A program made the position numbers and the translations under genes. A DNA stretch of 50,968 nt from Bacteroidales bacterium. GTDB taxonomy: Bacteria; Bacteroidota; Bacteroidia; Bacteroidales; P3. This document shows, piece after piece, positions 1,028 through 45,166 of this stretch. The stretch spans positions 1 through 50,968 of the forward strand of contig JAIKVZ010000046.1 of NCBI GenBank assembly GCA_024685285.1, in the 5' to 3' direction. The notes under the pieces were generated by a model. That model was not told the origin of the DNA and searched no databases. It saw nothing but the letters and a program-made list of their open reading frames with translations. Position 1 is the first letter of the stretch. Each line of letters starts with the position of its first letter.

Positions 1028-1092
1028 ATATCAGTCCGTTAGATAGGTTAGGTTCGGGTTAAGGTCGGGTTAAGGTCGGGTAGGGGTCGGAG
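1028..1092 (+). repeat. G-rich dispersed repeat, copy 1
   Basis: The core at 1046-1092 reads as units: GGTTAGGTTC, GGGTTAAGGTC, GGGTTAAGGTC, GGGTAGGGGTC, GGAGG. The flank at 1028-1045 (ATATCAGT...TTAGATA) is also shared with copy 2. Four further copies lie at 12763-12828 (same strand), 21876-21929, 30278-30342 and 45098-45166 (opposite strand). This copy lies 57 bases past the cca stop and upstream of the DUF1016 promoter. The G-rich strand has almost no C, so it cannot fold as an ordinary hairpin. The rest of the gap 907-1148 shows only the DUF1016 promoter. Confidence 0.9.
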
Positions 1093-1148
1093 GTCTATGC
1101 ACGGGCTCCGAACAAATGGTGGTGGTGCTGTATCTCAAGTACTGATAT

Positions 1149-2654
1149 TCAGATTGTTGATACTGGTTTTAGCCCTAATTTGGCGGCTTCGTCCATCATC
1201 ATCTGCAGGGCTGCCTCGCGGTCGTTGGGTATGCGGCCGTCGAGGATGGCGTCTTTGATGGCATCTTTGATTATGCCGATTTCACGGCACGGCGGCAGGG
1301 CGAAAGTGGTCATGATGTCTTCGCCCGAGACGGGTGGCTGGAAGTTGCGTATGCGGTCTTTCTCCTCAAGTTCCACCAATTTTTGGCGCACCAAGGCGAA
1401 GTTGGCCAAGTAGCGTCGCACCTTGGTTTCGTTTTTCGACGTAATATCGGCCTCGCAGAGTGTCATCAGGTCGTCGATGTCGTCGCCGGCGTCGAAGAGC
1501 AGTCGGCGCACCGCCGAGTCGGTCACCTCGTCTTCGGCCAGGATTATGGGCCTGAGGTGAAGCATGACGAGTTTTTCTACATATTTCATCTTGGCGTCGA
1601 GCGGCAGGCGCAGGTTGGCGAAGATGCGTTTCACCATGCGGCTGCCCCGAGCTTCGTGGCCGTGGAAGGTCCATCCTGATTGAGGGTCGTAGCGTTTGGT
1701 GCATGGCTTGCCGATGTCGTGCAGCAGGGCCGCCCAACGCAGCCATAGATTGTCGCTCTTCGAGGCCACATGGTCGAGCACCTCGAGGGTGTGGTAGAAA
1801 TTGTCCTTGTGGCTGCGCCCCTCGACAGTCTCGGTGCCTTTGAGGGCCGACAGTTCGGGGAATATGATGGGCAGCAGGCCGCTCTTGTCGAGTAGTTTGA
1901 AGCCAATAGAGGGCACCTGCGAGAGCATTATTTTGTTGAGCTCGGTGGTTATGCGCTCGTGCGAGACGATGCTGATACGGCTGGCGTTGCGGCCTATGGC
2001 GGCAAAGGTGTCGTCGGCAATGCGGAAGCGTAGCTGGGTGGCGAAACGTACGGCACGCATCATGCGCAGTGGGTCGTCGCTAAAGGTGATGTCGGGCTCG
2101 AGGGGGGTGCGCAGCAATCCGGCATCGAGGTCGCGTATGCCTCCAAAGGGGTCGAGCAGGGTGCCGAAGCAGTCGGCGTTGAGCGCCACGGCCATTGCGT
2201 TGATGGTAAAATCGCGCCGGTTTTGGTCGTCTTGCAGGGTGCCGTTTTCGACAATGGGCTTGCGGCTGTCGTTGCGGTAGCTCTCGCGGCGGGCTCCAAC
2301 AAACTCGACCTGCCACAACTCGCCGTTATGGTGCAGGTTGAACGAGGCTGTGCCGAAATTCTTGAACACCGAGACCTTTGTCGCGCTGAAGCCTTTCTGT
2401 TCCAAATCGTTCACAGCCTTGGCGGCGGCGTGGGCCAGTTCTATGCCTATGCTCGGCGCGCCGTCGGTTTCTGGACTTTTGGTTTGGTCGGGTTGCTCTT
2501 GTTGCGGCTTGCAGCACACAATGTCGATATCGGTACAGTGACGTCCAAGGAAATAGTCGCGAACAACTCCGCCCACAGCATAGGCCTGCACACCGATTTC
2601 ATCGGCGGCGCGGCCAACAATGGCGTATACGGGGTTGTCGAGTTGGACGTCCAT
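1149..2654 (-). CDS. cca: CCA tRNA nucleotidyltransferase / poly(A) polymerase family, HD domain
   Basis: This enzyme adds or repairs the 3' CCA end of tRNA from CTP and ATP in the cytoplasm. The head domain carries GGVVRD (28-33) and the metal-binding TDIDIV (41-46), followed by RRDFTINAMA (146-155), DPFGG (168-172) and DDPLRMMRAVRFA (193-205). An HD-type hydrolase motif HDIGKP is at 312-317, so it is the head-plus-HD class common in Bacteroidetes (501 residues, a usual length). Between TDIDIV and the next strand there is a charged Gln/Pro-rich insert (about residues 48-68) that looks like a surface loop. The gene starts 6 bases after the stop of the YwqK-like lipoprotein gene, so the two are probably co-transcribed. 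Adding CCA rather than A alone is inferred from the single-copy context and not proven. Confidence 0.9.
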   Translation of the reverse strand: MDVQLDNPVYAIVGRAADEIGVQAYAVGGVVRDYFLGRHCTDIDIVCCKPQQEQPDQTKSPETDGAPSIGIELAHAAAKAVNDLEQKGFSATKVSVFKNFGTASFNLHHNGELWQVEFVGARRESYRNDSRKPIVENGTLQDDQNRRDFTINAMAVALNADCFGTLLDPFGGIRDLDAGLLRTPLEPDITFSDDPLRMMRAVRFATQLRFRIADDTFAAIGRNASRISIVSHERITTELNKIMLSQVPSIGFKLLDKSGLLPIIFPELSALKGTETVEGRSHKDNFYHTLEVLDHVASKSDNLWLRWAALLHDIGKPCTKRYDPQSGWTFHGHEARGSRMVKRIFANLRLPLDAKMKYVEKLVMLHLRPIILAEDEVTDSAVRRLLFDAGDDIDDLMTLCEADITSKNETKVRRYLANFALVRQKLVELEEKDRIRNFQPPVSGEDIMTTFALPPCREIGIIKDAIKDAILDGRIPNDREAALQMMMDEAAKLGLKPVSTI

Positions 2655-2660
2655 GGGGTA

Positions 2661-3278
2661 TTAGTATTGTTTTGTTGTCACAAGGTTGCCGTCGCGGTCG
2701 TAAACCTCCCAGGTGCCAGTGCGCTGGCCGCCACTGTACTGGCCGAGGTAGTAGGGCGAGCCGTTGTCGCGGTAGACGTTGTAGCGGCCCTCCTCAAGTC
2801 CGTTCACAAAGGTGGCCTCGGTCTGGACCTGTCCGTTCGGGTAGTAGAACAGCCAGCGGCCTTGTCGAACTCCGCCCACTGTTATGCCGTTGCTGCGAGG
2901 GGTACAGGTGCTGTAGAACTGGTGCCAGCCTATGGTGTCGGCTTTGTGCAGGCACACAGTTGCCGGGGTCTCGCCCTCGCCCAGCTCGGTAACGGTAAGC
3001 GAGTCGTAGGTGGCGGAGAAGTAGGGCTTCCCGTCCTCTTTATAGAACTGCCAGTTGGTTCCGGTGGGGTATTCGGTACCGAATGTGGCAGTGGCAAACA
3101 GTTTGCCGCTGGGGTAGTAGTAGCGCCACTCGCCCTCGGGCTGGCCGGTCTTGCTGTTGTATATTTTTTCGGCTTGCAGCGAGCCGTCGGCACGTGTGTC
3201 GACCACCTTGTTGTGCTTGCGTTGGCAGGCACCGCCCAGCAGGGCTATGGCTATGAGTATGATTGTCAGTTGTTTCAT
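2661..3278 (-). CDS. YwqK/MORN-like repeat lipoprotein
   Basis: A 205-residue protein with a lipoprotein signal (MKQLTIILIAIALLGGAC), so it is expected to be lipid-anchored in the envelope. The body has repeated MORN-variant units with the pattern G-x-W-x-YYYPSG-x-L: GEWRYYYPSGKLFATATF, GRWLFYYPNGQVQTEATF, GRYNVYRDNG and GTWEVYDRDGNLV. Such proteins are often annotated as 'toxin-antitoxin system YwqK family antitoxin', but no toxin partner is present and that name says little about function. I chose the ATG at 3278 rather than the upstream in-frame ATG at 3350 because a TATCTTTG box lies at 3305-3312 and the lipoprotein signal begins here. It leads the operon with cca. Confidence 0.8.
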   Translation of the reverse strand: MKQLTIILIAIALLGGACQRKHNKVVDTRADGSLQAEKIYNSKTGQPEGEWRYYYPSGKLFATATFGTEYPTGTNWQFYKEDGKPYFSATYDSLTVTELGEGETPATVCLHKADTIGWHQFYSTCTPRSNGITVGGVRQGRWLFYYPNGQVQTEATFVNGLEEGRYNVYRDNGSPYYLGQYSGGQRTGTWEVYDRDGNLVTTKQY

Positions 3279-3304
3279 TGTTTTCGATGTTTGGTTTTTC
3301 GGTG

Positions 3305-3312
3305 CAAAGATA
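3305..3312 (-). promoter_or_regulatory. Promoter -7 box of the ywqK-like/cca operon
   Basis: The minus strand reads TATCTTTG followed by CACC, 26 bases before the ATG at 3278. It decides the start of the lipoprotein gene, since the upstream alternative ATG would not be on the transcript. Confidence 0.7.
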
Positions 3313-10431: not shown

Positions 10432-10845
10432 GCTGAGAGCAGAAAGCGGCAGCGGTTCCATCGCCGGGCTGGCAACAGCCGGGAGGAAAGTCCGGGCAAC
10501 ACGGGCCACCATACTTCCTAACGGGAAGGGGCCGGCAACACAGGGGCAACCCACCGGTCACAGCAAGTGCCACAGAAACCAGACCGCCGGCCACCGCAAG
10601 TGGCAGGCAAGGGTGAAACCGCGAGGCAAGAGCTCACGACCGAGCGCAGCGATGCGCCGGATGGTAAACCTTATGGGTTGAAAGACCAAATATATCGGCC
10701 GCATGTAGGGCTGGCCCGCCCGATGGCCGAGGGGTAGGTCGATAGAGGCCGTCGGCGACGGCGGTCGTAGATAAATGATGGAACGCAGCCTACTAAGGCT
10801 GCCGACAGAACCCGGCTTACACGCTGCCACTTTCGGCTGTCAGCA
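10432..10845 (+). ncRNA. rnpB: RNase P RNA, bacterial type A
   Basis: The catalytic RNA of RNase P, which matures tRNA 5' ends. Universally conserved core elements are present: GAGGAAAGTCCGGGC near the 5' side (about 10482-10496), GCAAGGGTGAAACCG in the middle, and ACAGAACCCGGCTTAC near the 3' side (10805-10820). The P1 helix can be drawn between GAAAG/GGCAGC at 10442-10453 and GCTGCC/CTTTC ending at 10834. An outer GCTGA (10432-10436) matches TCAGC (10840-10844). The ends are estimated from these pairings. No U-tract terminator is seen after it. Confidence 0.96.
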
Positions 10846-10880: not shown

Positions 10881-11918
10881 GTGAAACGTACAACCCTCAT
10901 AACCGCCCTCTTGTTGTCTGCCATCCTGTTGGCAGGCTGCTCCGGACAGTACCGTGCAGTTTCTCATGCAGCCCTGCTCGACTGGCACGAGGCTCAGACC
11001 TACCAGAACCTTAGGCAGCTGGCCGAAGCCTACGCCCTGACCATCAACGCCGCCGAGAAAGCCGACACCATCCACCCGGGTCTGCTGGCCGACTATGGCG
11101 TGGCCATGGCCATGTTGGGCGAGGAAGAGGAGGCCAACCGTGCCTTCAACCGCGAAATAAGCGCTTTCCCGCAGTCGCGCACCTACGTCGAAGCCCTCAA
11201 ACGCCGCTATGTGCCCGATTTTATTAACGACCACAGCGTCGGCAACGCCGACACTATCGACCTCACAGTGCTGCGAAATATTGTGCTCGACAGCATTACG
11301 GCCGAGCGTGTAGTGCCCCATGCCGGCCGCATTATAGATAGCACCGACACTGTGCGCATTTCAGCCCAGACCCCGACCGACTCAGTGCAGGCCGAGGTGC
11401 GCCTCACCGCCAACCAAAAGCGAGAGCGGCTAGCTGCAGAGCAGGCCGAAGCCGAGCGCATAAAACGCGAGCAAGCCGAAACAAAGGCGCAGGCAAAGCT
11501 TGATCGCGAAAAGGCAAAAAAGGAGGCCGACAATCTAAAGAAACAGCAGAAGAAAGACAAGGACAAGGCTCGCAAGGCCGAGCAGAAACGTCGCGACAAG
11601 GAGCGCAAACAGCTCCAACAACAACGCGAAAAAGAGCGTCAAGCCGCTGCCAAAGCCAAAGAAGAGCAGAAACAGGCCGCCGCCAAGGCCAAGGAGCGTC
11701 AGCGCAAAGAAGCCGCTGAGGCCAAAGAAGCAGAAAAACGTGCAGCCGACGAGGTTCGCAGGGCACAGCAGAAAGCACAGAAACAAGCCGAACAGGAAGC
11801 CGCAAAGGCTCAGAGAGAGGCCGAAAAAGAGGCCAAAGCCGCCGAGAAACGCGCCGCCGACGAAGCTCGCAAGGCTCAGAAAGAGGCCGCCAAACAACAG
11901 CAAACCAAGCAGCAATGA
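10881..11918 (+). CDS. DUF4810-like lipoprotein with long Lys/Glu/Ala coiled-coil tail
   Basis: Residues 1-20 are a lipoprotein signal (LLLSAILLAGC). Residues about 25-110 resemble the DUF4810 lipoprotein, including the TPR-like end (LLADYGVAMAMLGEEEEANRA, FPQSRTYVEALKRRY). DUF4810 is normally a protein of about 120 residues encoded between a CsgG-like and a DUF799 (GNA1162) lipoprotein, and the DUF799 gene does follow here with a 4-base ATGA overlap. From about residue 170 to 345 the protein is a nearly pure Lys/Glu/Ala/Gln/Arg tract (AKERQRKEAAEAKEAEKRAA-type), expected to form a long coiled coil. Such a tail is not typical of the family. The role is unknown; an envelope complex with the DUF799 protein is inferred. 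Confidence 0.72.
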   Translation: MKRTTLITALLLSAILLAGCSGQYRAVSHAALLDWHEAQTYQNLRQLAEAYALTINAAEKADTIHPGLLADYGVAMAMLGEEEEANRAFNREISAFPQSRTYVEALKRRYVPDFINDHSVGNADTIDLTVLRNIVLDSITAERVVPHAGRIIDSTDTVRISAQTPTDSVQAEVRLTANQKRERLAAEQAEAERIKREQAETKAQAKLDREKAKKEADNLKKQQKKDKDKARKAEQKRRDKERKQLQQQREKERQAAAKAKEEQKQAAAKAKERQRKEAAEAKEAEKRAADEVRRAQQKAQKQAEQEAAKAQREAEKEAKAAEKRAADEARKAQKEAAKQQQTKQQ

Positions 11919-12718
11919 AACCGCAGACACTCATAACAGCGCTGGCGGCCCTGCTCGCCATAAACCTCACGGGTTGCAAAACTACCCAGAAAACGGCCTT
12001 CTACGAAGATATCTACAAGGAGCAAACCGCTACCATATACGTGGCCCCGCTCAACGATCTCTCGGCACGCAACGCCGAGCGCGAACTGAACGACAAAAAC
12101 CACAACGCCTCGCTCAACACTGCGGCCAAGTACCTCTATATCAGTGCCTCGACGCCGTTAATCACCAGCGGCTACTACGTTATACCGCCATTGGCCTCGG
12201 CACAGATTGCCGCCGCCGAGCAGCGTACCCGCAAAGAGCTTATGACAGGCAAGATTGACGACTACGCCACCCGCTACGGGATCGACGCCGTGCTATTCAC
12301 CACCATCCACGGCTGGCGTGAAACCTCGTGCCAGTGGACCCTCTTTGCCGAATACGTGCTGCGCTCGACAAAAAGCAACGACGAGCTCATGCATGTGTGG
12401 GTCGAAGCCTCGAAACTGCTGCCCACCGACCATCGTGGCAACCCTCTGCCGCTTAAAGCCGACCAGGATTTTGCCGACCAGTGGGACTGTGATCTCGCCA
12501 CAGCACAGCGTTGCCGTCTGGCCGAAATACTCAACCAGTTTGTGCTCAACGACTTGCCGCTCGGCAACCGTAGCCGGCAGTACAATGAAGACCGCTACAT
12601 ACCGTCGCGCTCAACCGAGTATATCAAGCTTATGGTAGACCGCGACGGCACCCTCGAGATGAAGCGCATCTCGTTGGAGCAATTCGAAGAGGATTGCTTT
12701 TTGCAAGACGAAAAGTAA
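11915..12718 (+). CDS. DUF799 / GNA1162-family lipoprotein
   Basis: A 267-residue protein with a lipoprotein signal (LITALAALLAINLTGC). Family-like segments include IYVAPLNDLSARNAERELN (an early beta strand and loop), the central SGYYVIPPLA and YGIDAVLFTTIHGW. In Proteobacteria this family forms an operon with DUF4810 and a CsgG-type outer-membrane lipoprotein and is thought to act at the outer membrane. The DUF4810-like partner overlaps it upstream, but no CsgG gene is adjacent. It ends convergently with mltG, separated by a G-rich repeat. Annotation rests on these segments and on gene order. Confidence 0.72.
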   Translation: MKPQTLITALAALLAINLTGCKTTQKTAFYEDIYKEQTATIYVAPLNDLSARNAERELNDKNHNASLNTAAKYLYISASTPLITSGYYVIPPLASAQIAAAEQRTRKELMTGKIDDYATRYGIDAVLFTTIHGWRETSCQWTLFAEYVLRSTKSNDELMHVWVEASKLLPTDHRGNPLPLKADQDFADQWDCDLATAQRCRLAEILNQFVLNDLPLGNRSRQYNEDRYIPSRSTEYIKLMVDRDGTLEMKRISLEQFEEDCFLQDEK

Positions 12719-12762
12719 AGCCTTGAAAATTAACACTTTAAATAATTATATATAACCCGCTG

Positions 12763-12828
12763 TATATCAGTGGCTTAGATGGGTTAGGTTCGGGTTAAGG
12801 TCGGGTTGACATCGGGTAGGGGTCGGAG
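12763..12828 (+). repeat. G-rich dispersed repeat, copy 2
   Basis: Units GGTTAGGTTC (12782-12791), GGGTTAAGGTC, GGGTTGACATC, GGGTAGGGGTC (to 12824), GGAG, preceded by TATATCAGT...TTAGATG as in copy 1. Same strand as copy 1. It lies between the stop codons of two convergent genes (12718 and 12901). The remainder of this 182-base gap is AT-rich and shows no other feature. Confidence 0.9.
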
Positions 12829-12900
12829 TTATATGCCCGGATTGCGTCCCTGTCCCGATGATTTACCGTCTATAGCCTATATTATAGGTAGTTATGTGGC

Positions 12901-13878
12901 TTATTTAATGCCTCGTTGGTTCAATGCCCGGTGGAACTTGGCCGCGTTGGTCTGGTGCTCTGCCAGGGTTGAGGCGAAACGGTGGGTGCCGTCCATTTCG
13001 GGCGAGGCGCAGAAATAGAGGTAGTTGGTCTTGGGTGCATTGAGCACGGCGTCGACAGAAGCATCGGATGGCAGGCATATTGGCGCTGGTGGCAGACCGG
13101 CGTGGAGGTAGGTGTTGAATGGCGACTCGGTGGCAAGGTGCCTGTTGAGGATGCGGCGCAGGGCAAAATCGCCTACGGCGTACTTGACCGTTGGGTCGGC
13201 CTGCAGGGGCATACCGCGTTCCAGACGGTTGATGTAGACGCTGGCAATTAGGGGCTTTTCGGCTGCGTTGTTGGTCTCTTCCTCTACGATTGAAGCGAGT
13301 ATGATTATGTTTTCAAGGCTGTAGTCGTAGCGGCCGTGTTCGATTAAGTCGGCCCGCAGTTCGCCGCCAGGCCCTATGGCTTTGTTCCAAAATTGGGCAT
13401 ATTCTTTCTCCATACGCTCCATAAAGGCCTCGGGAGTTACGGTCCAGTAGAATTCGTAGGTGTTTGGGCGGACGAGGTAGAAGCTGTCGATGGTGACATT
13501 GAAACCGTTGCACATCAGCTTTTTGTCGAGGTATTCGTTTAGCTGTTGCGGAGTGCGGAATTTGCCTATGGTGAGGCGGAGAGGGTCTTGCTGGCCGTTG
13601 CGCAGTTTGTGTGCAAGGTTGACTTCGCGCATATTTGCGTCGATGACGTAGCTGCCTGGGCGCACATGGCTGTCGAGTTTTAGGGCGTGGGCAATGAGTC
13701 TGAATGTCGGTGAGGCGTCAATACTGTCGCACAGGGCCTCGTATGTAGTGCCTTCGGGAATGTAAATCCGCACGGCCTCGCTGTTGGCGGTGCGCTGCAT
13801 TGCGACGCATAGCACGCCTCCTGCTCCCAGGACTGCTGCGGCGATGACCGCAAGTGCAATTGCTGTTGTGCGTTTCAT
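12901..13878 (-). CDS. mltG: Endolytic murein transglycosylase MltG (YceG-like)
   Basis: Cuts nascent peptidoglycan strands at the outer face of the inner membrane and is thought to end glycan synthesis. The N-terminal TM anchor is ALAVIAAAVLGAGGVLCVA. A LysM-like region follows (YIPEGTTYEALCDSI), then the YceG catalytic domain with the glutamate in ILASIVEEETN, the INRLERGMPLQADPTVKYA motif and NTYLHAGLPPAPICLPSD. 325 residues is usual. It is the last gene of the topA-to-mltG run, 3 bases after the acetyltransferase stop. Confidence 0.93.
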   Translation of the reverse strand: MKRTTAIALAVIAAAVLGAGGVLCVAMQRTANSEAVRIYIPEGTTYEALCDSIDASPTFRLIAHALKLDSHVRPGSYVIDANMREVNLAHKLRNGQQDPLRLTIGKFRTPQQLNEYLDKKLMCNGFNVTIDSFYLVRPNTYEFYWTVTPEAFMERMEKEYAQFWNKAIGPGGELRADLIEHGRYDYSLENIIILASIVEEETNNAAEKPLIASVYINRLERGMPLQADPTVKYAVGDFALRRILNRHLATESPFNTYLHAGLPPAPICLPSDASVDAVLNAPKTNYLYFCASPEMDGTHRFASTLAEHQTNAAKFHRALNQRGIK

Positions 13879-17446: not shown

Positions 17447-19320
17447 AGCCTGCCGATGTTACGAGTTAGTATCTTCCAGTCAGTGGATACGCGATACTTT
17501 CGCATATACTTATAGTTTAGGTGTTCGGCCAATTGGGTGGAGGCTCCCCTAACAATATTAGCCGGCATAAATACACCGTCTCTACCGCTGTAGCCTACCC
17601 AACTCAAGGTGCCAAATAACACTGAGATGCAATGCCTCAGATAGCGGCCTTTGTCCTCCTGTGACCATATTAATATGGGCGAAAGTAGTAGCAAAGCAAA
17701 TGAAGTGGTTATGTCGAATAATCTCTTCTTGCGTCGGTTGGTAGGCGAGGCTACGGTATCAAGCTCTACCGATAGTATGTCTTCATCGGATGCAATACCG
17801 TTGCTGCCTATTATATAGTCGCCTTCGCTAGGGGCTATCTTATATTCTAAGCCAGTAGTTTTGAGCGATGCCATCAAGGTGATTATCTGCTGTGGAGGGA
17901 GGTCTTTGGCGCAGAATATTACCTCTCCGGCGTTGTAATAGCGTATTAGTTCGGACAATCTACTTGTTTCGTTCGGGTTAACATCGGTGGTGGGTGCCAA
18001 ATTCAGGGAGGCATACATATCGGCCACGCGTTTGCACTCCGACGGATTGCCAACCACAAGGCACATCTTGCGTTTCCGTGCTGTCAGGGTGTAGCCGTCT
18101 GCACCTATGGCACTCAGCACCATACGTATTATTACGTGTGATGCCAATGTCCATATTGATCCGAGTATTAGCAACATTCTCGAGTACCGCTGTGTCTCGT
18201 CAAGTAGTGAGTAGAATGCCAACAACAGTGCCAGTCCTATGGCCATCCCTCTGATTGTACGGCTTAGCTTTATGGGCTTGTCGTAACCTCCGCTGAGCCA
18301 TGAGGCTGCCATTAAAGTCAAAATGTACAATGGTATGACAATTGTTGTGTATTGCGGTGGGTAGTAGTTGATGTTTGCAGCCCAATATGTGGCCCATAGG
18401 TTTTTGATGACGACAAAGCCGGCATACGACAACGCAAAATCGGCCAGTGGTACAGCTACCTGCCGTGCGATGCGTTGCAGAAACGAGAGTCCAGCCCTGA
18501 GCCAAATGGCTGTTTGCAACAGCATATTAAAGATGCGGGCATTGCTGCCGCTGAAGTAGTGTCTGGCAAAGATGGCCATAGCATTGTAGAAGGTGTAGAC
18601 ATAGTTCATCGAGCCCTTCTTAGTGCTTTCTCCCTTGTAGTGTATTATTCTAGCCGACGGTAGATAGTAGTTCTTGTATCCGGCAAGTTTTATGCGCCAT
18701 GAATAGTCTATGTCTTCACCATACATGAAGTAGCTTTCGTCAAGCAATCCCACGGCATTGAATGCGCTTCGGCTAAACATCATGAAAGCACCTGGCAGTA
18801 TTTCTATCTCATTAGTCTCATCCTCCGACAGATGTCCCATATAGTATGCTGCAAAACGCTTTGAGTGGGGAAATATTCGTGTGAGACCTGTTAATTTATA
18901 GAACGAGGTTTCTGGCGATGGAAATCCACGCTTGCTCTCTCTGAGGTAGTTTCCTTTGCCGTCAATCATTTTAACGCCCAAACCACCGCAGGTTGGGTGT
19001 TGTTGCATAAAGTCTATACATCTGGCAAAGGTGTCGCGTTCAACAAGTGTGTCGGGGTTGAGTAGCAGCAGATAGTCACCGGAGCATTGCCGTAGGGCTT
19101 GGTTGTTGGCTTTGGCAAAGCCTACGTTGTCGGTATTTGCAATCAGTTGTACCTGCGGAAAACGATTCTGCACCATCTGCACCGAATTGTCTACCGAGTT
19201 GTTGTCGACCACAAATACTTCAAGTTCGGTACCGCCTGTCTCAGAAGCAAATACCGACTCCAAGCACTGTTCAAGGAAGTACTTGACGTTGTAGTTGACA
19301 ATAACTACCGAGAGTGTCAT
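17443..19320 (-). CDS. GT2 glycosyltransferase fused to membrane and degenerate sugar-phosphotransferase-like region
   Basis: Residues 1-260 are a family 2 glycosyltransferase: SVVIVNYNVKYFLEQCLESV, VVDNNSVDNS, LLLNPDTLVERDTF and SYFMYGEDIDYSWR. Residues about 285-400 contain several hydrophobic segments (AVPLADFALSYAGFVVI, TTIVIPLYILTLMAASWL, MAIGLALLLAFYSLL). A Rossmann-like stretch follows (KMCLVVGNPSECKRVA), then a C-terminal part resembling polyprenyl-phosphate sugar transferases (KKRLFDITTSFALLLLSPIL, LFGTLSWVGYSGRDG) but without their substrate-binding middle. I infer a membrane-bound transferase for cell-surface glycan with a non-catalytic C-terminal half. It overlaps topA and the OMP gene by 4 bases each. 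Acceptor and sugar unknown. Confidence 0.78.
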   Translation of the reverse strand: MTLSVVIVNYNVKYFLEQCLESVFASETGGTELEVFVVDNNSVDNSVQMVQNRFPQVQLIANTDNVGFAKANNQALRQCSGDYLLLLNPDTLVERDTFARCIDFMQQHPTCGGLGVKMIDGKGNYLRESKRGFPSPETSFYKLTGLTRIFPHSKRFAAYYMGHLSEDETNEIEILPGAFMMFSRSAFNAVGLLDESYFMYGEDIDYSWRIKLAGYKNYYLPSARIIHYKGESTKKGSMNYVYTFYNAMAIFARHYFSGSNARIFNMLLQTAIWLRAGLSFLQRIARQVAVPLADFALSYAGFVVIKNLWATYWAANINYYPPQYTTIVIPLYILTLMAASWLSGGYDKPIKLSRTIRGMAIGLALLLAFYSLLDETQRYSRMLLILGSIWTLASHVIIRMVLSAIGADGYTLTARKRKMCLVVGNPSECKRVADMYASLNLAPTTDVNPNETSRLSELIRYYNAGEVIFCAKDLPPQQIITLMASLKTTGLEYKIAPSEGDYIIGSNGIASDEDILSVELDTVASPTNRRKKRLFDITTSFALLLLSPILIWSQEDKGRYLRHCISVLFGTLSWVGYSGRDGVFMPANIVRGASTQLAEHLNYKYMRKYRVSTDWKILTRNIGRL

Positions 19321-21653
19321 TTTTTGCGGGCCGACTTTTTGGTGCTTGAGGCTTCGATAGTCTTTTTGGCCTCATCAAGGGTTATCTTCAGTGGGTCAGT
19401 GTTTTTGCCTATACGATAGTTGTTGCCTTTATGGCTCAGGTATGGACCGTATTTGCCTATGTTCGACACCACTGGCGAGCCGTCCAGTATGCCAATCTCA
19501 TGTGGATAGAGTTCTTTCAGCTTCTCTTTCGCGGCTTCGGCGCTGCGTTTTGTCTCGATGATTTCAATGCAGCGCTCACATGTTACTTCATATGGGTCGT
19601 CGTTTTTGCCTAACGAGTAGAACTTGTTACCCAATCGTACGTATGGACCAAATTTACCAATGCTCACAATCACTTCCGAGCCCTCGAATGTGCCCACTGT
19701 TCGCGGCAGGTTGAAGAGGTTGAGGGCCTCGTCAATGGTTATGGTCTCAATGCTTTGTCCCTTCTTGAGGCTGGCAAAGCGCGGTTTTTCGTCGCTGTTT
19801 GTCTCGCCAATCTGCACAAGGGTGCCGAAACGGCCAATCTTTGCATATACATTTTTGCCGCTCTTATGGTCGGTGCCAAGCAGACGGGCACCAGTGGAGC
19901 GGTGGCTGTTCTGCTGGGTGAGCAGTATGTTGCGGTGGAATGGCTTGTAGAACTTGTCAATCACGCTGCGCCACTGTTTCTTACCGTCGGCAATGTCGTC
20001 GAAATCCTTTTCAACAGTAGCGGTGAAATTGTAGTCCATGATTTCGTTGAAGTTGTTCATCAAGAAGTCGTTCACCACGCTGCCAATGTCGGTCGGGCGC
20101 AGCTTGTTCTTCTCGGCGATGCCCTTTTCGGTGCGAACCTCCCTTGTGGTGGTTTTGTCTTGCAAACCAAGTCTTACATAGTTATAACTCTCTGGTTGCA
20201 GGTCTTCTTTGATTATATATTCGCGCTTCAATATGGTGCTGATGGTTGGTGCGTATGTCGAGGGACGGCCAATACCGAGGTCTTCGAGCTTCTTGACCAG
20301 GCTGGCCTCGGTGTAGCGCGGAGCGTGCTGTGTGTAGCGCTGGGTGGCGTCGCACGCGGTCATGGCAACCTTGGCGCCTACTGCCAATCGCGGCAACAGT
20401 GTGGCTTGGCTCTCGCCTGTGGTCTCCATCTCGTCGTCGGTCGATTCAATATAAACTTTCAGGAAACCGTCGAAGAGCAGCTGTTCGCCAACGCATTCGA
20501 ACTGTGAATCGAGAGTGGGGCTGGTCGCGGCAATCTCCATACGGGTGCGCTCCAACTCGGCGTCGGCCATCTGGCTTGCCACAGTGCGTTTCCATATCAG
20601 CTCGTACAGGCGGCGCTGCGACGGGTCCTCATCCACCGTGTGCTTGTCCATGTGGGTGGGACGGATAGCCTCGTGAGCCTCCTGGGCCCCTTTGGTCTTG
20701 GTTTGATAGCGGCGGGTCTTGACGTAGCGCTGACCGTACAGGGCGGCAATTTCCGTTTTTGCCATATTCAGGGCAGTGTCGCTCAGGTTTACGCTGTCGG
20801 TACGCATATAGGTAATGTGTCCGCTCTCGTATAGTTGCTGGGCAATCTGCATGGTGCGTGCTACGCTGAAACCCAACTTGCGGCTGGCTTCCTGTTGCAG
20901 TGTCGAGGTGGTGAAAGGCGGCGCCGGGGTGCGATGGGTTGGCTTGGTCTCGGTGCTGCACACCTCAAAGGTCGCTCCTTTGAGCCTGTTGAGAAGCGCG
21001 GCGGCCTCCTCCTCGGTGTCGCAGCGGCGGCTTAGCTCGGCGGTCAGCGTGTCCTGGCCGGCTTTGAATTTGGCTGTGATGCGGAAGTAGCTTTGCGGTA
21101 CGAAGGCCTTGATTTCCTCCTCGCGCTCTACAATGAGGCGAACTGCCACGCTCTGCACGCGGCCGGCGCTCAGGGCGGGCTTGATTTTGGCCCACAGTAT
21201 GGGGCTAATTTCGTAACCCACCAAGCGGTCCAGCACGCGGCGTGCCTGCTGGGCGTCAACCAAGTTCATGTCAACCGTGCGCGGGTTCTCGATGGCGTGC
21301 AGGATGGCCGGCTTGGTGATCTCGTTGAACACTATGCGGCGCGTGCGCGCAGGGTCTGGCTTGAGGGTCTCCTGCAGATGCCATGCTATGGCCTCTCCCT
21401 CGCGGTCCTCATCGGATGCCAGCCACACCTGCTCGGCGGCAGCCACGTCCTTCTGCAACTCGGCAACTATCTTACGCTTGTCGTCCGCAATTTCATATTC
21501 CGGCTCATAGCCGTGGTCTATGTCAACACTCATCTCCTTTTTTGCCAGGTCGCGTATGTGACCGTAGCTCGACTTGACGGTGAAGTCTTTGCCGAGGAAC
21601 TTTTCAATAGTCTTGGCTTTGGCCGGAGACTCAACAATAACAAGGTTTTTCAT
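19317..21653 (-). CDS. topA: DNA topoisomerase I
   Basis: Relaxes negative supercoils through a 5'-phosphotyrosine intermediate. At 778 residues: Toprim domain (LVIVESPAKAKTIEKFLG, ASDEDREGEAIAWHL), the active site with Tyr282 in YMRTDSVNLS, GRPSTYAPTIS, then three topoisomerase C-terminal repeats (VYAKIGRFGTLVQIGE, VSIGKFGPYVRLGNKFYSL, SNIGKYGPYLSHKGNNYRIG). A Lys/Ser-rich tail ends the protein. No zinc-finger cysteine pairs remain in the C-terminal repeats, as in other Bacteroidetes TopA. It heads the seven-gene operon down to mltG, with a promoter at 21691-21698. Confidence 0.96.
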   Translation of the reverse strand: MKNLVIVESPAKAKTIEKFLGKDFTVKSSYGHIRDLAKKEMSVDIDHGYEPEYEIADDKRKIVAELQKDVAAAEQVWLASDEDREGEAIAWHLQETLKPDPARTRRIVFNEITKPAILHAIENPRTVDMNLVDAQQARRVLDRLVGYEISPILWAKIKPALSAGRVQSVAVRLIVEREEEIKAFVPQSYFRITAKFKAGQDTLTAELSRRCDTEEEAAALLNRLKGATFEVCSTETKPTHRTPAPPFTTSTLQQEASRKLGFSVARTMQIAQQLYESGHITYMRTDSVNLSDTALNMAKTEIAALYGQRYVKTRRYQTKTKGAQEAHEAIRPTHMDKHTVDEDPSQRRLYELIWKRTVASQMADAELERTRMEIAATSPTLDSQFECVGEQLLFDGFLKVYIESTDDEMETTGESQATLLPRLAVGAKVAMTACDATQRYTQHAPRYTEASLVKKLEDLGIGRPSTYAPTISTILKREYIIKEDLQPESYNYVRLGLQDKTTTREVRTEKGIAEKNKLRPTDIGSVVNDFLMNNFNEIMDYNFTATVEKDFDDIADGKKQWRSVIDKFYKPFHRNILLTQQNSHRSTGARLLGTDHKSGKNVYAKIGRFGTLVQIGETNSDEKPRFASLKKGQSIETITIDEALNLFNLPRTVGTFEGSEVIVSIGKFGPYVRLGNKFYSLGKNDDPYEVTCERCIEIIETKRSAEAAKEKLKELYPHEIGILDGSPVVSNIGKYGPYLSHKGNNYRIGKNTDPLKITLDEAKKTIEASSTKKSARKK

Positions 21654-21698: not shown

Positions 21699-21875
21699 AC
21701 ACCTTTTTTTTAATTGGCAAAAAAATATTGAATAAATTATATTTTACGGATAACGCTAACAAAAATACCTAAATAATTTGGATTAAGATGATTGAGTTGG
21801 AAATATGGTTGCAACGTGTTGAAAACCAGTCAAAATATAATTAAAGTAGGGGTTTTGTTCGGGAATTTTGTGTCG

Positions 21876-21929
21876 ACCGCCGAACCTTACCTGACCTCAA
21901 CCCGACCTTAACCCGAACCTAACTTATAT
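21876..21929 (-). repeat. G-rich dispersed repeat, copy 3
   Basis: On the minus strand: AGTTAGGTTC, GGGTTAAGGTC, GGGTTGAGGTC, AGGTAAGGTTC, GGCGG. It lies about 100 bases past the stop of the TPR gene (22027) and about 180 bases upstream of the topA promoter. It is the most diverged copy in the outer units. Confidence 0.85.
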
Positions 21930-22026
21930 AACGGTTTGATAGCCAGTATGTTGTGTGTCGTTATCTAACCAATTGAATTTCAGTTGGTTGGATGTTTGTG
22001 GTATTTTTCTAAACGAAAAGATGGTT

Positions 22027-23133
22027 TTACCATTTGATGCCTCGCTTGATGCACCACGACTGGGAGTCGGTGTGGCCGAGTTTTGCGGCGCGTTTGCGGT
22101 TGGCCTGTTCCCGTTTGGGGTTGTTCTGACGCTCATACAGGTCGGCGATGAGGCTGTAGGTCTCGCCGTCGGCGCTGTTGAGTTCGGCTGCTTTCTGGTA
22201 ATTGCGTATGGCTGCGGCGTAGTCGCCTTTGAAGGTATAGGCGCGTCCCATGTGTTTGTATGCCTCGGGTTGTGAAGGGGCTTTTTTAGCGGCTTGGCGG
22301 TGCATGGCTATGGCACGCTCGTAGTCGCCCTGTTCGCAGTATATCTGACCCATGCTGTTGTAGGCGTCGATGTAGAGGCTGTCGAGCCCTATGGCGGCCT
22401 GGTAGCACTCTATGGCTTTTTGTTTGTCGCCGCGCAGACGGTAGGCCCATCCCAAGCAGTTGTAGAGCCTTACCGAGTTGCGGTGGCGTTGCAGCCCTTT
22501 GCGCAGGGTGTTGATGGCCGACTCGTGGTTGTTGCGCAGGCAGTACATGGTGCCGAGGTTGAAGTAGGCGTCGCAATTGTCAGGGTCGGCTTGCAGCGCT
22601 TGCCTGAACTGGCGTATGGCTTCGTTGTCCTGCCCTTTGCTGTAGCATACTATGCCTGCGGCGTTGAAGGCCCTAGCGCTGGTGTGGTTGGCTTCGAGAG
22701 CTCGTTTGGCCCACATCTCGGCGTTGGTGTAGCTTTTGTTATGGCAGTGGTAGAGGCAGAGTGTGGACATGGCCGACGATAGGTCGGTTTTGTCTGTGGC
22801 AATCTCCACGGCTTTTTCGGCGGCCTGTTTGGCAGGTCCCCACAGACCCAGTTCGGCCCGGCAGAGAGCTAGGTGGGCCATGGTGGCGCCTGTGGTGTCG
22901 GCTTGTGAGAGCCACCGCTCCGCTTCGGTGTAACGCTCTGCATTCTCGCAAATTATGCCAAGTTGTAATCGAGCGTTGCTGCTGTCGGCAGTGGCGAGGG
23001 CTTGCTTGAAATAGTCGGCGGAGAGGTCTGTAAGGCCTTTTTCGAGGGCATCGACACCTTTTTTGTAGGGTGTCTGGCCGACGATTGTAGCAGCCAAAAC
23101 GGTGAACAACAGTGTTATGGGTAGTCGTTTCAT
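22027..23133 (-). CDS. Secreted TPR-repeat protein
   Basis: A 368-residue protein with a signal peptide (LPITLLFTVLAATIVGQ) and about nine tetratricopeptide units covering most of the mature part (for example AFNAAGIVCYSKGQDNEAIR, AYFNLGTMYCLRNNHESAI, LYNCLGWAYRLRGDKQKAI, AYNSMGQIYCEQGDYERAI and AYKHMGRAYTFKGDYAAAI). TPR arrays bind other proteins; the partner is unknown. It is expected in the periplasm or on the envelope. It is divergent from dnaB with 67 bases between the starts, and no clear TAnnTTTG box faces it. Confidence 0.85.
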   Translation of the reverse strand: MKRLPITLLFTVLAATIVGQTPYKKGVDALEKGLTDLSADYFKQALATADSSNARLQLGIICENAERYTEAERWLSQADTTGATMAHLALCRAELGLWGPAKQAAEKAVEIATDKTDLSSAMSTLCLYHCHNKSYTNAEMWAKRALEANHTSARAFNAAGIVCYSKGQDNEAIRQFRQALQADPDNCDAYFNLGTMYCLRNNHESAINTLRKGLQRHRNSVRLYNCLGWAYRLRGDKQKAIECYQAAIGLDSLYIDAYNSMGQIYCEQGDYERAIAMHRQAAKKAPSQPEAYKHMGRAYTFKGDYAAAIRNYQKAAELNSADGETYSLIADLYERQNNPKREQANRKRAAKLGHTDSQSWCIKRGIKW

Positions 23134-30277: not shown

Positions 30278-30342
30278 GTCGGAGGATGCCGAACAGTACC
30301 CGATGTCAACCCGACCTTAACCCGAACCTAACCTATGTAAGG
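30278..30342 (-). repeat. G-rich dispersed repeat, copy 4
   Basis: On the minus strand: GGTTAGGTTC, GGGTTAAGGTC, GGGTTGACATC, GGGTACTGTTC, GGC. The third unit is identical to copy 2. It fills the space between two convergent genes and even supplies the stop codon of the HAD gene: ATAGGTTAG gives Ile-Gly-stop at 30328-30336. Confidence 0.9.
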
Positions 30343-31329
30343 TGTTGATGGAGAGGGTGTTACGGCTGCGATTTGTGAATTGAGGCTATCTATTTGGTTT
30401 TCAATGAATTCTTCCGAATATTTAGCATCGGCGAATCCGTTGCCTCGGGCAATGTAGGCAGGGTCGTCGCTGCAGTCGGTCAGGAGCTCTTCGTAGTTGT
30501 GCATTGTGCGGCGCAGGCGCAGTTGTTCGGCGGCCTCGGGGGTGGGGGAGAATAGCAATCCTTGCAGGGCTTGTGCAATGCCTTCGTGGTCTACATCGGT
30601 GGTCACATAGTCGGCATGGCGTTTCACCTTGTCGGCTGCGTTGCCCATAGCCACGCCAATGCCGGCCCAACGCAGCATTTCGATGTCGTTGCCTCCGTCG
30701 CCGAAGGCTATGGTTTCGCTCTGGTCGATACCGAATCGGCGGCATATACAGTCCATACCTACAGCTTTGCTATTGGCCGAACACACAATGTCGGTGAAAA
30801 CGTTGTGCCAGCGCGGCAGTCGGCAGGCCGGCAGCATCCGTGCCACCTCGGCATCCATCTCGGGCGGCATCAAGGCTATAATCTGGTATATCTTGCTTTG
30901 GGCCAGTTGTTCTATGGGTGTGAGGGGCGGCATGGTAAATTCCAGCTGGTCTCGCAGGGCCTGGGCTTCTGGGGTTATTTTGTTCACCGCCATGCCATGT
31001 GCTGTGAAGAGCATGGTGCAGAGGTCGTGTTCTTCGGCAAATCGCAGCCAGCGTTGGCTCTCGGCTTGTGGTATAGGGCTGTCGACGAGCAGTTCGCTGC
31101 CAGCAAATACGTAGCCGCCGTTCATTGTTATATAGCCGTCGAAGACGACAGGCATTTCCGGTATGAGAATCTCAGGTCGTCCAGACGAAATGAAGGTGCG
31201 CACCCCCATGCGGCGCAGTTGTTCCAAGGCCTTGACGGTGCCTTCTGACAGGCGGTGGCTCTCGAAACTGAGCAATGTGCCGTCAATATCGAAGAATGCG
31301 GCTTTTATTTTTTGCGGTTGTAATGCCAT
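30328..31329 (-). CDS. HAD-superfamily (Cof-type) phosphatase
   Basis: Cytoplasmic phosphatase of the haloacid dehalogenase class IIB. Motif I is AAFFDIDGTLLSF (near residue 10), motif II is in FISSGRP, and motif IV is IAFGDGGNDIEMLRWAGIGVAMGNA, with the Cof cap between. At 333 residues it is about 60 longer than usual; the extra C-terminal part (from about residue 275) is not conserved, and its last codons come from repeat copy 4. Substrate is unknown (sugar phosphates or FMN-type in relatives). Its start overlaps the end of the transporter gene by 25 bases. Confidence 0.88.
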   Translation of the reverse strand: MALQPQKIKAAFFDIDGTLLSFESHRLSEGTVKALEQLRRMGVRTFISSGRPEILIPEMPVVFDGYITMNGGYVFAGSELLVDSPIPQAESQRWLRFAEEHDLCTMLFTAHGMAVNKITPEAQALRDQLEFTMPPLTPIEQLAQSKIYQIIALMPPEMDAEVARMLPACRLPRWHNVFTDIVCSANSKAVGMDCICRRFGIDQSETIAFGDGGNDIEMLRWAGIGVAMGNAADKVKRHADYVTTDVDHEGIAQALQGLLFSPTPEAAEQLRLRRTMHNYEELLTDCSDDPAYIARGNGFADAKYSEEFIENQIDSLNSQIAAVTPSPSTPYIG

Positions 31330-43344: not shown

Positions 43345-44418
43345 ATGCAAAAGAAAGGCAACAAGTACGGTACCCACCGCGTCATCGAGCCCAAAGGCGT
43401 GCTCCCGCAGCCGGCCAACAAACTCGACAACAACATGGACGAAATTTGGGACAACGAGATTCTTATTGATGTACAGACCCTTAACATCGACAGTGCTTCG
43501 TTTACTGACATCCACAACTACGCCAGACAGCAGGCCGGCGAAGGCGCCAGCCAGGAACGTATCATGGAAGAGGTGAAGAAGGAGATGCTTCTCAACGTCG
43601 AGCTTCAGGGCAAGCACCGCAACCGTCGCACCGGTTCTGGCGGTATGCTCCTTGGTAAAGTCGAGAAGATTGGCGATGCCCTCAAGGGTAAAATCGACCT
43701 CAAAGAGGGCGACCGTATTGCCACCCTCGTCAGCCTCTCGCTGACCCCACTCCGTATTGACGAAATACTCGATATACGTCCCGATGTTGACCAGGTTGAC
43801 ATCAAGGGTAAGGCCATCCTTTTCGAAAGCGGCATCTATGCCAAGATACCCACCGATATGCCAGAGAAACTCGCTCTCAGCGCTCTCGACGTGGCCGGTG
43901 CTCCCGCACAGACAGCCAAGCTGTGCCAGTATGGCCAGACTGTAGTTATTCTCGGCGCTGGTGGTAAGAGTGGTATGCTTTGCTGCTATGAGGCTAAGAA
44001 ACGTGTTGGTGTCACTGGCAAGGTCATAGGTATCGCCAACAGCCCCAAGAGCACCCAGCGTATCAAGGACCTCGGTTTCTGCGACATCGTTGAAAGTGCT
44101 GCCGGTATGACTCCCGTCCAGGTGTATGAACTCATTGAGCGCCTCACCAACGGCAAGATGGCCGACGTCACTATCAACTGCGTCAACGTTCCCGACCAGG
44201 AGATGACTGCTGTGCTCTGCACCAAAGACGACGGCATTGTCTACTTCTTCTCGATGGCTACCAGCTTCACCAAAGCCAGCCTCGGCGCCGAGGGTATTGG
44301 TAGCGATGTGAACATGATTATGGGCAACGGCTATACCAAAGGCCATGCCGAGTTCACACTGCAGGAGCTCCGCGAGAGCCCCAAACTGCGCAAGATCTTC
44401 GAAGAACTCTACGCTTAA
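43345..44418 (+). CDS. kdd: L-erythro-3,5-diaminohexanoate dehydrogenase
   Basis: Oxidatively deaminates 3,5-diaminohexanoate to 5-amino-3-oxohexanoate in lysine fermentation, downstream of lysine 2,3-aminomutase. 357 residues matching Kdd of fusobacteria and Bacteroidales: N-terminal KYGTHRVIEPKGVLPQPANK, the NAD(P)-binding VVILGAGGKSGMLCCYEAKK, GVTGKVIGIANSP, VNVPDQEMTAVLCTKDDG and MATSFTKASLGAEGIGSDVN. KamA, the first enzyme, is at 49.1-50.4 kb on the other strand; the intermediate mutase (KamDE) and the cleavage enzyme (Kce) are not here. The gene ends 10 bases before a strong terminator. Confidence 0.9.
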   Translation: MQKKGNKYGTHRVIEPKGVLPQPANKLDNNMDEIWDNEILIDVQTLNIDSASFTDIHNYARQQAGEGASQERIMEEVKKEMLLNVELQGKHRNRRTGSGGMLLGKVEKIGDALKGKIDLKEGDRIATLVSLSLTPLRIDEILDIRPDVDQVDIKGKAILFESGIYAKIPTDMPEKLALSALDVAGAPAQTAKLCQYGQTVVILGAGGKSGMLCCYEAKKRVGVTGKVIGIANSPKSTQRIKDLGFCDIVESAAGMTPVQVYELIERLTNGKMADVTINCVNVPDQEMTAVLCTKDDGIVYFFSMATSFTKASLGAEGIGSDVNMIMGNGYTKGHAEFTLQELRESPKLRKIFEELYA

Positions 44419-44428
44419 CATTACAGTG

Positions 44429-44478
44429 ATGAGTGATGAACGGTGAATTAATTCACTGTTCATCACTCATTTTTTTTT
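44429..44478 (+). terminator. Intrinsic terminator after kdd, long palindrome
   Basis: The left arm 44429-44449 and right arm 44450-44470 form a 21-bp stem with one G-U pair and essentially no loop (centre AATTAATT), followed by eight T (44471-44478). The arms are built from repeats of GTGATGA. It ends the ppdK-to-kdd run. Confidence 0.9.
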
Positions 44479-44485
44479 ATTCATT

Positions 44486-45043
44486 ATGATACAGTCCCGA
44501 GCCGATTACCACAATTATGTGCGAGCCGATATAGCCGCCTACGGTCTCAAACGGCTAAGTCTGCGCACGTGGCTGCAGGCCGACCACATACGTTTCCTGC
44601 TTCGGTTACGTCGCATAGAATACCTCGCCAACTGCCAACCTTGGCGACTGTTTTCGAGGGCGCTGCTCGTGGCTGTTAACCATAGGCTGGCGGTGAGGCT
44701 CGGTTTCACCATACCGCCCAACACCTTCGGCCCCGGACTTTGCATAGCCCATCGCGGCACCGTCATAGTTAATCCTGCCGTGCATGTGGGTTCCGGCTGT
44801 AAACTCCATGCCGACACAAACATAGGCGACTACAATGGCACCCCCGTCATAGGCAACGATGTCTATATTGGCCCGGGGGCAAAAATATTCGGAGCCATCA
44901 CAATAGGCGACAATGTGGCCATAGGTGCCAATGCCGTTGTCAACCGCTCATTTGGGTCCAACTGCACCATAGGCGGTATCCCGGCGCACGTTCTATCGGA
45001 CACCGGTGCTCGTGAGCGTGGCCTTTTCAATCGTGATAAATAA
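44486..45043 (+). CDS. Hexapeptide-repeat acetyltransferase (CysE/serine acetyltransferase-like)
   Basis: 185 residues. N-terminal helical part (residues 1-75), then a left-handed beta helix of hexapeptide repeats (LCIAHRGTVIVNPAVHVG, IGDYNGTPVIGNDVYIGPGA, ITIGDNVAIGANAVVNRSFG) and the closing IGGIPAHVLSD. The pattern matches serine O-acetyltransferase-like enzymes often found in surface-polysaccharide loci; true CysE has a longer N-terminal domain. The substrate is therefore open. It begins 8 bases after the T-run of the terminator; its own promoter is not evident. Confidence 0.8.
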   Translation: MIQSRADYHNYVRADIAAYGLKRLSLRTWLQADHIRFLLRLRRIEYLANCQPWRLFSRALLVAVNHRLAVRLGFTIPPNTFGPGLCIAHRGTVIVNPAVHVGSGCKLHADTNIGDYNGTPVIGNDVYIGPGAKIFGAITIGDNVAIGANAVVNRSFGSNCTIGGIPAHVLSDTGARERGLFNRDK

Positions 45044-45097
45044 CTGATTCTTAGGGTAAAGAATGTCTTTGGCCGCAAGAACATCGGAAATTTGTAG

Positions 45098-45166
45098 TTG
45101 GCCTCCGAAGTAGATCCGACCTTGACCCGACCTTAACCCGAACCTAACCTATCTATTAGTCTGATT
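45098..45166 (-). repeat. G-rich dispersed repeat, copy 5
   Basis: On the minus strand: GGTTAGGTTC, GGGTTAAGGTC, GGGTCAAGGTC, GGATCTACTTC, GGAGG, preceded by AATCAGACTAATAGATA, similar to the flank of copies 1 and 2. It lies between the convergent acetyltransferase and ygiQ genes. The remaining sequence of the gap (45044-45237) shows nothing else. Confidence 0.9.

What the first reader, a model, noticed from the sequence alone, without database searches (positions are those of the whole stretch)
1028..45166. Dispersed repeat family of about 11-bp units, five copies, each just 3' of a gene
Copies at 1028-1092, 12763-12828, 21876-21929, 30278-30342 and 45098-45166 share GGTTAGGTTC followed by GGGTTAAGGTC and two more degenerate 11-base units. 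Inner units are identical in all five; outer units diverge. All lie in intergenic space downstream of at least one stop codon, three between convergent genes, and none in a 5' leader between promoter and start. The 11-base period is close to one helical turn, which would put every unit on the same DNA face. Roughly one copy per 10 kb suggests hundreds per genome. It is not a hairpin terminator or a REP palindrome.
Basis: seen in the sequence. Interest (0 to 1): 0.75.

Follow-up and report, generated by a model that had tools for sequence, protein, structure and literature searches.

The report
Evenly spaced chromosomal DNA sites
Three related rumen bacteria each carry dozens to hundreds of copies of their own version of a short DNA site, which in two of them is spread along the chromosome at nearly regular intervals of about 10,000 letters, usually where two genes end facing each other; it looks like a built-in chromosome ruler or a tag for DNA exchange.

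Summary
The five copies are real and belong to a large family: 215 matches to a 24-bp core (up to 3 mismatches; some elements count twice) in this 2.0-Mb rumen Bacteroidales genome, none for the reversed pattern. Of 120 genus genomes searched with a relaxed pattern, only this species and its two nearest relatives have it in bulk, each in its own 11-mer dialect.

Placement follows rules. Convergent gaps of at least 60 bp are occupied in 28/33, 20/25 and 20/27 cases (three species), tandem gaps in 29/246, divergent gaps in 4/96, never twice in one gap. Copies are quasi-evenly spaced: 39 intergenic spacings average 9.9 kb with CV 0.44 and none under 4 kb, versus CV 0.80 for random gaps; a second species agrees, the third is inconclusive. 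Copies inside genes mostly sit in long empty intervals, and one site differs from its orthologue by substitutions only. Terminator-like hairpins often flank the core, but in-gene copies suggest termination is not its main role.

Best reading: a chromosome-wide sequence-specific site kept about once per 10 kb, probably a binding array that organises or insulates the chromosome. Rivals: an uptake sequence without known pili, or a mobile element with target immunity. Function is inferred.

The parts
976..1122 (+). Element copy 1 (core 1046-1069), tandem gap, 3' of the CCA tRNA nucleotidyltransferase-like gene 1149-2654(-); core strand opposite to that gene
   Evidence: outer limits approximate
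12712..12860 (+). Element copy 2 (core 12782-12805), convergent gap between 11915-12718(+) and the MltG gene 12901-13878(-)
   Evidence: outer limits approximate
21840..21994 (-). Element copy 3 (core 21901-21924, one mismatch), tandem gap between topA 19317-21653(-) and 22027-23133(-); lies in about 265 nt that are missing at the same gap in relatives G132 and G016
   Evidence: outer limits approximate
30278..30342 (-). Element copy 4 (core 30310-30333), convergent gap of 50 bp; core overlaps the stop codon of 30328-31329(-)
45080..45220 (-). Element copy 5 (core 45126-45149), convergent gap between 44486-45043(+) and the YgiQ radical SAM gene 45238-47073(-)
   Evidence: outer limits approximate

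Best explanation
A chromosome-wide, sequence-specific DNA site. Its heart is (in this species) TTAGATR followed by three or four 11-bp direct repeats, so that the units fall on one DNA face, and it is kept about once every 10 kb in either orientation. Most copies sit in convergent 3'-3' gaps, where positive supercoils from facing transcription meet and no promoter is disturbed. Where no such gap is at hand the site is found in a tandem gap or even inside a gene. I infer that a species-specific DNA-binding protein oligomerises on the 11-bp array and marks or insulates domains of about 10 kb (topological or nucleoid organisation). The flanking hairpin is an accessory transcription terminator in a share of copies. 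Shown: copy number, dialects, placement, spacing in two species, scarcity of close pairs, in-gene copies in long intervals. Inferred: the protein, the organising role, the link to supercoiling.
For: Spacing in four G000 contig stretches (421 kb): 39 intergenic spacings, mean 9.9 kb, CV 0.44, 0 under 4 kb; the same numbers of copies put on random convergent/tandem gaps give CV 0.80 +- 0.12 (0 of 5000 as even). With the 4 in-gene copies: 43 spacings, CV 0.33, 4.2-15.9 kb; four random points do as well with P 1.5e-4, a 4-kb dead-zone exponential with P 8e-4. G016: 27 intergenic spacings, CV 0.43 versus 0.90 +- 0.14, 0 of 3000. Exact sites, from capped lists: 1 of 84 spacings (G016) and 0 of 69 (G000) under 4 kb, 23 and 18 expected. 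In-gene copies: 3 of 4 in G000 lie in its two longest intervals (28.1 and 19.1 kb), 5 of 6 in G016 in intervals over 15 kb. Convergent gaps of at least 60 bp: 28/33, 20/25, 20/27 occupied, never twice; in G000 and two G016 contigs those over 4 kb from another copy 41 of 44, nearer ones 0 of 8. Bimodal core: 28 gaps with 0-3 mismatches, 5 with 8-14. One G132 in-gene site differs from its orthologue by substitutions only. Dialects in three nearest kin.
Against: No binding protein was identified. The evenness test in G132 was not significant (16 spacings, CV 0.53 versus 0.62, P 0.20). The exclusion zone is not absolute: one G016 intergenic pair is 2.2 kb apart, one listed exact pair 3.7 kb and one in-gene variant 3.1 kb from the next copy. 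Adding in-gene copies shortens the longest G016 interval (20.3 to 15.5 kb) but does not lower its CV (0.39 to 0.42). 117 of 120 genus genomes have no bulk family by the pattern used, so the role is not universal unless other dialects exist. A 20-kb stretch of G016 (C3:60001-80000) has no copy. Uptake sequences are also reported as evenly spaced (PMC1939737, passage), so spacing alone does not prove an intracellular role.
Confidence: 0.4

Rival explanations
1. DNA uptake sequence: the site is a self-recognition tag for natural transformation, spread by molecular drive; spacing reflects the length of incoming fragments, so a second site nearby gains nothing.
For: Hundreds of matches to a nearly invariant core with diverged flanks, species dialects, no consistent strand bias, even spacing, an in-gene site that differs from its orthologue by substitution, association with terminator-like hairpins, ComEC present in all three genomes, partly separate histories of left and right flanks.
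Against: No match over the Pfam cut-off to the type II/IV secretion-pilus ATPase family PF00437 in G000, G016, G132, G008, G123 (no other pilus family was searched). About 1 site per 10 kb versus about 1 per kb in Haemophilus (PMC7811141, passage). Core of 22-24 bp. In-gene share 4 of 49, 6 of 39 and 5 of 38 versus 65% and 35% reported for H. influenzae and N. gonorrhoeae (PMC1939737, passage).
Confidence: 0.25
2. Mobile element (MITE or BOX-like) whose transposase avoids DNA near existing copies (target immunity, as in Tn7 and Mu, recalled) and prefers 3' ends.
For: One gap (topA) has about 265 extra nt in G000 that G132 and G016 lack. The only two tandem-gap copies whose neighbours are conserved in the sampled orthologue pairs (three comparisons, the topA copy counted twice) are not shared between species. 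Immunity would give an exclusion zone.
Against: Core conserved but most flanks diverged; an in-gene site without an indel relative to its orthologue. No Y1 transposase in G000 or in the 100%-complete G016 (one in G132); other transposase families were not searched. The one listed G016 pair under 4 kb flanks a gene that reads as ileS, with no transposase between (gene named by eye). No target duplication was recognised at the one empty site.
Confidence: 0.17
3. Bidirectional transcription terminator or insulator for convergent genes.
For: High occupancy of convergent gaps, one per gap; left palindrome with A-tract and T-tract edges; the three G000 convergent gaps of 60-150 bp without it show ordinary hairpins by eye; hairpin plus T-run in 17/29, 10/18 and 14/20 element-bearing convergent gaps.
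Against: In-gene copies and even spacing are not expected of a terminator. Element-free convergent gaps carry hairpin plus T-run as well (4/5, 2/5, 8/8; G008 6/6). Left regions fold with z below -2 in only 39%, 17% and 38% of copies (controls 11%, 0%, 15%). Convergent gaps close to another copy do without it.
Confidence: 0.1
4. Recombination site or hotspot that reshuffles gene neighbourhoods at 3' ends.
For: Some copies share only the left or only the right flank with another copy, with change-points in or near the core. Element-bearing convergent neighbours were changed (or not recognised) in 9 of 9 genes in G000-G132 and 9 of 9 in G000-G016.
Against: Convergent gene ends without the element were also changed, 3 of 3 in each comparison. 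In G132-G016 4 of 10 such genes (two gaps) kept their neighbour. Left and right likeness are still positively correlated (0.29). No recombinase was identified or searched for.
Confidence: 0.08

Closest known systems
DNA uptake sequences (USS of Pasteurellaceae, DUS of Neisseriaceae)
   Same: Hundreds of copies of a core in both orientations, species dialects, copies in and between genes, reported even spacing, link to terminators (PMC1939737 and PMC7811141 passages; PMC1852404 search listing only)
   Different: About ten times sparser, longer direct-repeat core, strong preference for convergent gaps, almost no pairs under 4 kb, no PF00437 pilus ATPase found
REP/BIME elements of enterobacteria
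   Same: Extragenic, many copies, hairpins; hypothesised roles in supercoiling, termination and mRNA stability (PMC3733652, abstract start in listing)
   Different: Core not palindromic; Y1 (RAYT-type) transposase family absent in two of three genomes; 11-bp direct repeats; regular spacing
BOX elements of pneumococcus (recalled)
   Same: Modular: end module, variable number of inner repeats, second end module
   Different: Core invariant while end modules vary; regular spacing; in-gene cores
Intergenic heptamer arrays such as TAACTGA repeats in Beggiatoaceae, Cyanobacteria and five Bacteroidetes (PMC4679880, abstract read)
   Same: Short direct repeats between genes in many sets
   Different: 7-nt period and mostly just before start codons there; 11-nt period, 3' placement and even spacing here
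Nucleoid-organising sites: matS/MatP, Noc and SlmA sites (recalled)
   Same: Dedicated short site scattered over the chromosome and read by one protein
   Different: Those sites are short palindromes, fewer or regional; no protein is known here

Membership tests
DNA uptake sequence | Hundreds of copies of one short near-invariant core, both strands | tested here: met
   215 match positions, 101 + and 114 -; 197 in G016 at up to 1 mismatch
DNA uptake sequence | Type IV pilus-type uptake machinery | tested here: not met
   PF00437 below cut-off in 5 of 5 genomes (only this family searched); ComEC present in 3 of 3
DNA uptake sequence | Core enhances DNA uptake | not testable with these tools
   needs a cultured strain
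REP/BIME with RAYT | Palindromic unit | tested here: not met
   core is a set of direct repeats, not self-complementary
REP/BIME with RAYT | Y1_Tnp (RAYT-type) gene in the genome | tested here: not met
   0 in G000 (90% complete) and G016 (100%), 1 in G132
Integron attC | GTTRRRY core at site (motif recalled) | tested here: not met
   by eye: GTTAGGT fits in G000 only; G016 GTTARGG and G132 GTTCGGG do not; integrase not searched
MITE/BOX-like mobile element | Clean insertion with target duplication | tested here: inconclusive
   one gap with about 265 extra nt, no duplication recognised by eye
Intrinsic terminator | Stable hairpin followed by T-run | tested here: inconclusive
   present in 17/29, 10/18, 14/20 convergent element gaps and in 4/5, 2/5, 8/8 without element; the core itself has none
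Known structured RNA (Rfam) | Match at gathering score | tested here: not met
   only RNase P in the window; in three loci two sub-threshold miRNA hits

The most novel reading that the evidence does not exclude
A bacterial chromosome carries a dedicated ruler: about two hundred protein-binding sites kept at near-regular intervals of about 10 kb with hardly any pair closer than 4 kb, preferentially where transcription converges and otherwise written into tandem gaps or coding sequence. Each species has its own 11-bp dialect that co-evolves with its reader, and the sites define loop or supercoil domains.
Probability: 0.35. Interest if true: 0.92.

Novelty: new variant of a known kind. Interest (0 to 1): 0.78.

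Why it matters
Regular positional marks at the 10-kb scale would give a sequence handle on bacterial domain organisation, which is usually inferred only from Hi-C or supercoiling probes. If the site is an uptake sequence instead, it would be a new uptake-sequence system outside the two classic families, in a group of rumen bacteria. Either way three sister dialects allow reader-site co-evolution to be tested.

Tried and rejected
Three-frame stop cassette: TAG, TAA and TGA fall in the three frames of G000 and G016 cores, but the common G132 core has no such stops, so dropped. Replication-strand marker: copies versus GC skew of the stretch 27/17, 10/20, 17/12, no consistent bias. Nested RNA stem between 11-mers and the 3' side: no clear covariation over shuffled tails for units 0-3; only a short right hairpin (4.93 versus 4.52 +- 0.13) and the left palindrome (6.36 versus 5.03 +- 0.18) exceed shuffles. 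REPIN/RAYT. Phage or plasmid origin: no exact 21-mer in the viral contigs, no match of copy 2 in phages or plasmids; one search asked only about RNase P RNA. Contig ends at sites: looked at by eye in the lists, not computed. (first protein) and 80 used the wrong G000 gene (coordinate slip); redone. In one search the script took a 148-column alignment row for the window; the window was read correctly from then on.
Full report
Observation. The five copies exist as described. The 24-bp core GGTTAGGTTCGGGTTAAGGTCGGG has 215 match positions at up to 3 mismatches in the 2,007,956-base genome G000 (101 +, 114 -), and none for the reversed control; some elements match twice (7 of 30 loci). No Rfam family covers it at gathering score. 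G000 is a draft, 90% complete with 6% contamination.

Anatomy. Among 59 copies with at most one core mismatch the conserved stretch runs from about -32 to +44: TAAC....CTG.....CAG....TTAGATR, then 11-mers GGTTAGGTTCG, GGTTAAGGTCG, a variable third (GGTCAACATCG 16, GGTTGACATCG 10, GGTTGAGGTCG 9 of 59) and a looser fourth. The core looks invariant partly because copies were chosen by it. The unbiased check is by gap: 28 of 33 convergent gaps of at least 60 bp have 0-3 mismatches and the other five have 8-14; shuffled gaps have 9-13. The left side is a palindrome whose arms match better than shuffles (6.36 versus 5.03 +- 0.18) and folds with z below -2 in 39%, 17% and 38% of copies in G000, G016 and G132, against 11%, 0% and 15% of control stretches. 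A right hairpin is weaker.

Distribution. In the 120 genomes held for the genus, a relaxed two-unit pattern matched 8; only G000 (260 matches), G016 (248) and G132 (90) in bulk, G008 14, G023 4, three others 1 each. More distant dialects would be missed by that pattern. By TopA, G132 (81%) and G016 (76%) are the nearest kin; all other full-length matches are at 74% or less, and three genomes had no match. Dialects: G016 GGTTARGGTCGTRTTGAGGTCG, often after TGTTAAAGAGG; G132 GGTTCGGGTCG-GGTTTGGTTCG-GCCTTACATCG with the same kind of left palindrome. The 24 genomes searched from other families had none of the 24-mer.

Placement. With a home-made hexamer gene caller on 441 kb of G000, 320 kb of G016 and 351 kb of G132. 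Stretches were not random: large G000 contigs with many hits, and for G016 and G132 largely contigs that appeared in hit lists. Convergent gaps of at least 60 bp occupied 28/33, 20/25, 20/27; tandem 13/94, 8/74, 8/78; divergent 2/38, 1/25, 1/33; no gap holds two (matches within 120 bp merged); Fisher P, convergent versus tandem, 2e-13, 2e-10, 9e-10. Gaps under 60 bp: convergent 1/7, 0/1, 0/9; tandem 0/171, 1/143, 0/129. Of 49, 39 and 38 elements, 4, 6 and 5 are inside genes and 1, 3 and 4 at stretch edges. Twenty further G000 loci (L001-L020) gave 11 convergent and 9 tandem, a weaker preference than in the sampled contigs.

Spacing. In four contig stretches of G000 (421 kb) the 39 intergenic spacings average 9.9 kb, CV 0.44, minimum 4.2 kb; random choice of the same numbers of convergent and tandem gaps gives CV 0.80 +- 0.12 and 7.8 spacings under 4 kb against none seen. 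Of the four in-gene copies two fall in the 28.1-kb interval, one in the 19.1-kb and one in a 12.2-kb interval; with them CV is 0.33 and the maximum 15.9 kb (P 1.5e-4 for random points; P 8e-4 against a 4-kb dead-zone model; without them the dead-zone model is only marginal, P 0.05). G016: 27 intergenic spacings, CV 0.43 versus 0.90 +- 0.14, one under 4 kb (2.2 kb). On its two long stretches 5 of 6 in-gene copies lie in intervals over 15 kb; including them brings the maximum from 20.3 to 15.5 kb but leaves CV at 0.42 (0.39 before) with one spacing of 3.1 kb. G132: CV 0.53 versus 0.62, P 0.20, 16 spacings. Capped lists of exact sites agree: 1 of 84 (G016) and 0 of 69 (G000) spacings below 4 kb, 23 and 18 expected at random. 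Convergent gaps more than 4 kb from another element are occupied in 41 of 44, nearer ones in 0 of 8 (four G000 and two G016 stretches). Site-poor places: on G016 C1 the next copy I found after the listed site at 121,581 is at 155,837 (I read only from 140,001), past a run of small same-strand genes with a SecY-like one, read by eye; a 20-kb stretch of C3 with GC 48% against 54% has none.

Turnover. The topA gap holds about 265 nt in G000 that G132 and G016 lack. Two tandem-gap copies with conserved neighbours (this one included) are not shared between species, while the two convergent gaps with conserved neighbours in G132-G016 carry copies in both. Flank comparisons over 64 copies give 18 pairs alike on the left, 2 on the right, 1 on both, with change-points in or near the core. 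Several of the left-alike pairs follow paralogous gene ends that look like T9SS sorting domains (my reading of the translated end, no database call), so gene duplication explains part of this.

Inside genes. A G132 gene (L116:4542-5489) carries a site with 2 mismatches to the G132 pattern; there it reads SGSGRV where its 85%-identical G000 orthologue reads SPSRRF, with no indel. I infer that the site was made by substitution; this is one case. In a Mur ligase-domain gene that reads as folylpolyglutamate synthase, an 11-mer array is present in both G000 and G016 with different length and dialect (domains of the G016 protein). These copies argue against termination as the main role and against simple insertion as the only origin.

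Wider context. Intergenic DNA of this genus shows an excess of 6-mer recurrence at lag 11: in at least one gap class in all seven larger samples and at 5 per thousand or more in 11 of 20 further genomes sampled with at most 20 kb each, versus at most 1.0 in the 8 genomes of other families that gave data. Units differ between species and are sometimes inverted arrays. Lag 7 is as strong or stronger in several. In G008 such arrays sit in divergent gaps, so the convergent rule belongs to the G000 clade.

Literature. No paper on these repeats was found in the searches, nor on an uptake sequence in Bacteroidetes (open-licence PMC only; listings seen). For uptake sequences I read passages of PMC1939737, which reports that Karlin et al. 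took their even spacing as a sign of a role in replication, repair or compaction and itself argues that they are not even enough for compaction, and passages of PMC7811141 (spacing about 1 kb); for heptamer arrays the abstract of PMC4679880.

Judgement. Rule-like placement in three species and even spacing in two make a maintained chromosomal site the best reading. Whether its reader works inside the cell (organisation) or at the envelope (uptake) is open.

Noticed in passing
L127-L146, L072-L075, L167-L186 (other species of the genus): Intergenic regions across much of the genus are rich in species-specific tandem repeats of period 11 and 7 (e.g. inverted arrays of TTCTTCAGTAG units in G008 and G023, TCGAAGAACAA in G029), not seen in eight genomes of other families of the order.
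   Followed up: partly
L143-L146 and L072-L074 (G008): In G008 the inverted 11-mer arrays sit in divergent gaps, not at convergent ends.
   Followed up: partly
L043:2871-4205 and L059:17823-19199: Folylpolyglutamate synthase-like gene with an in-frame 11-mer array in a loop, different in length and dialect in G000 and G016.
   Followed up: partly
L026, L041, L042, L047, L015: Several copies follow gene ends that look like T9SS C-terminal sorting domains, with near-identical left flanks but mostly different right flanks.
   Followed up: partly
L269 (G016 C3:60001-80000): No element in 20 kb, and no exact site listed before C3:120268; GC 48% versus 54%: possibly a chimeric or foreign part of that contig.
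   Followed up: no
window 10445-10835: Bacterial RNase P RNA class A on the + strand.
   Followed up: no
L033 (G016 C22:34631-34784): A tandem array of about 14 units of GGTTRAGGTCG, far longer than in ordinary copies.
   Followed up: no
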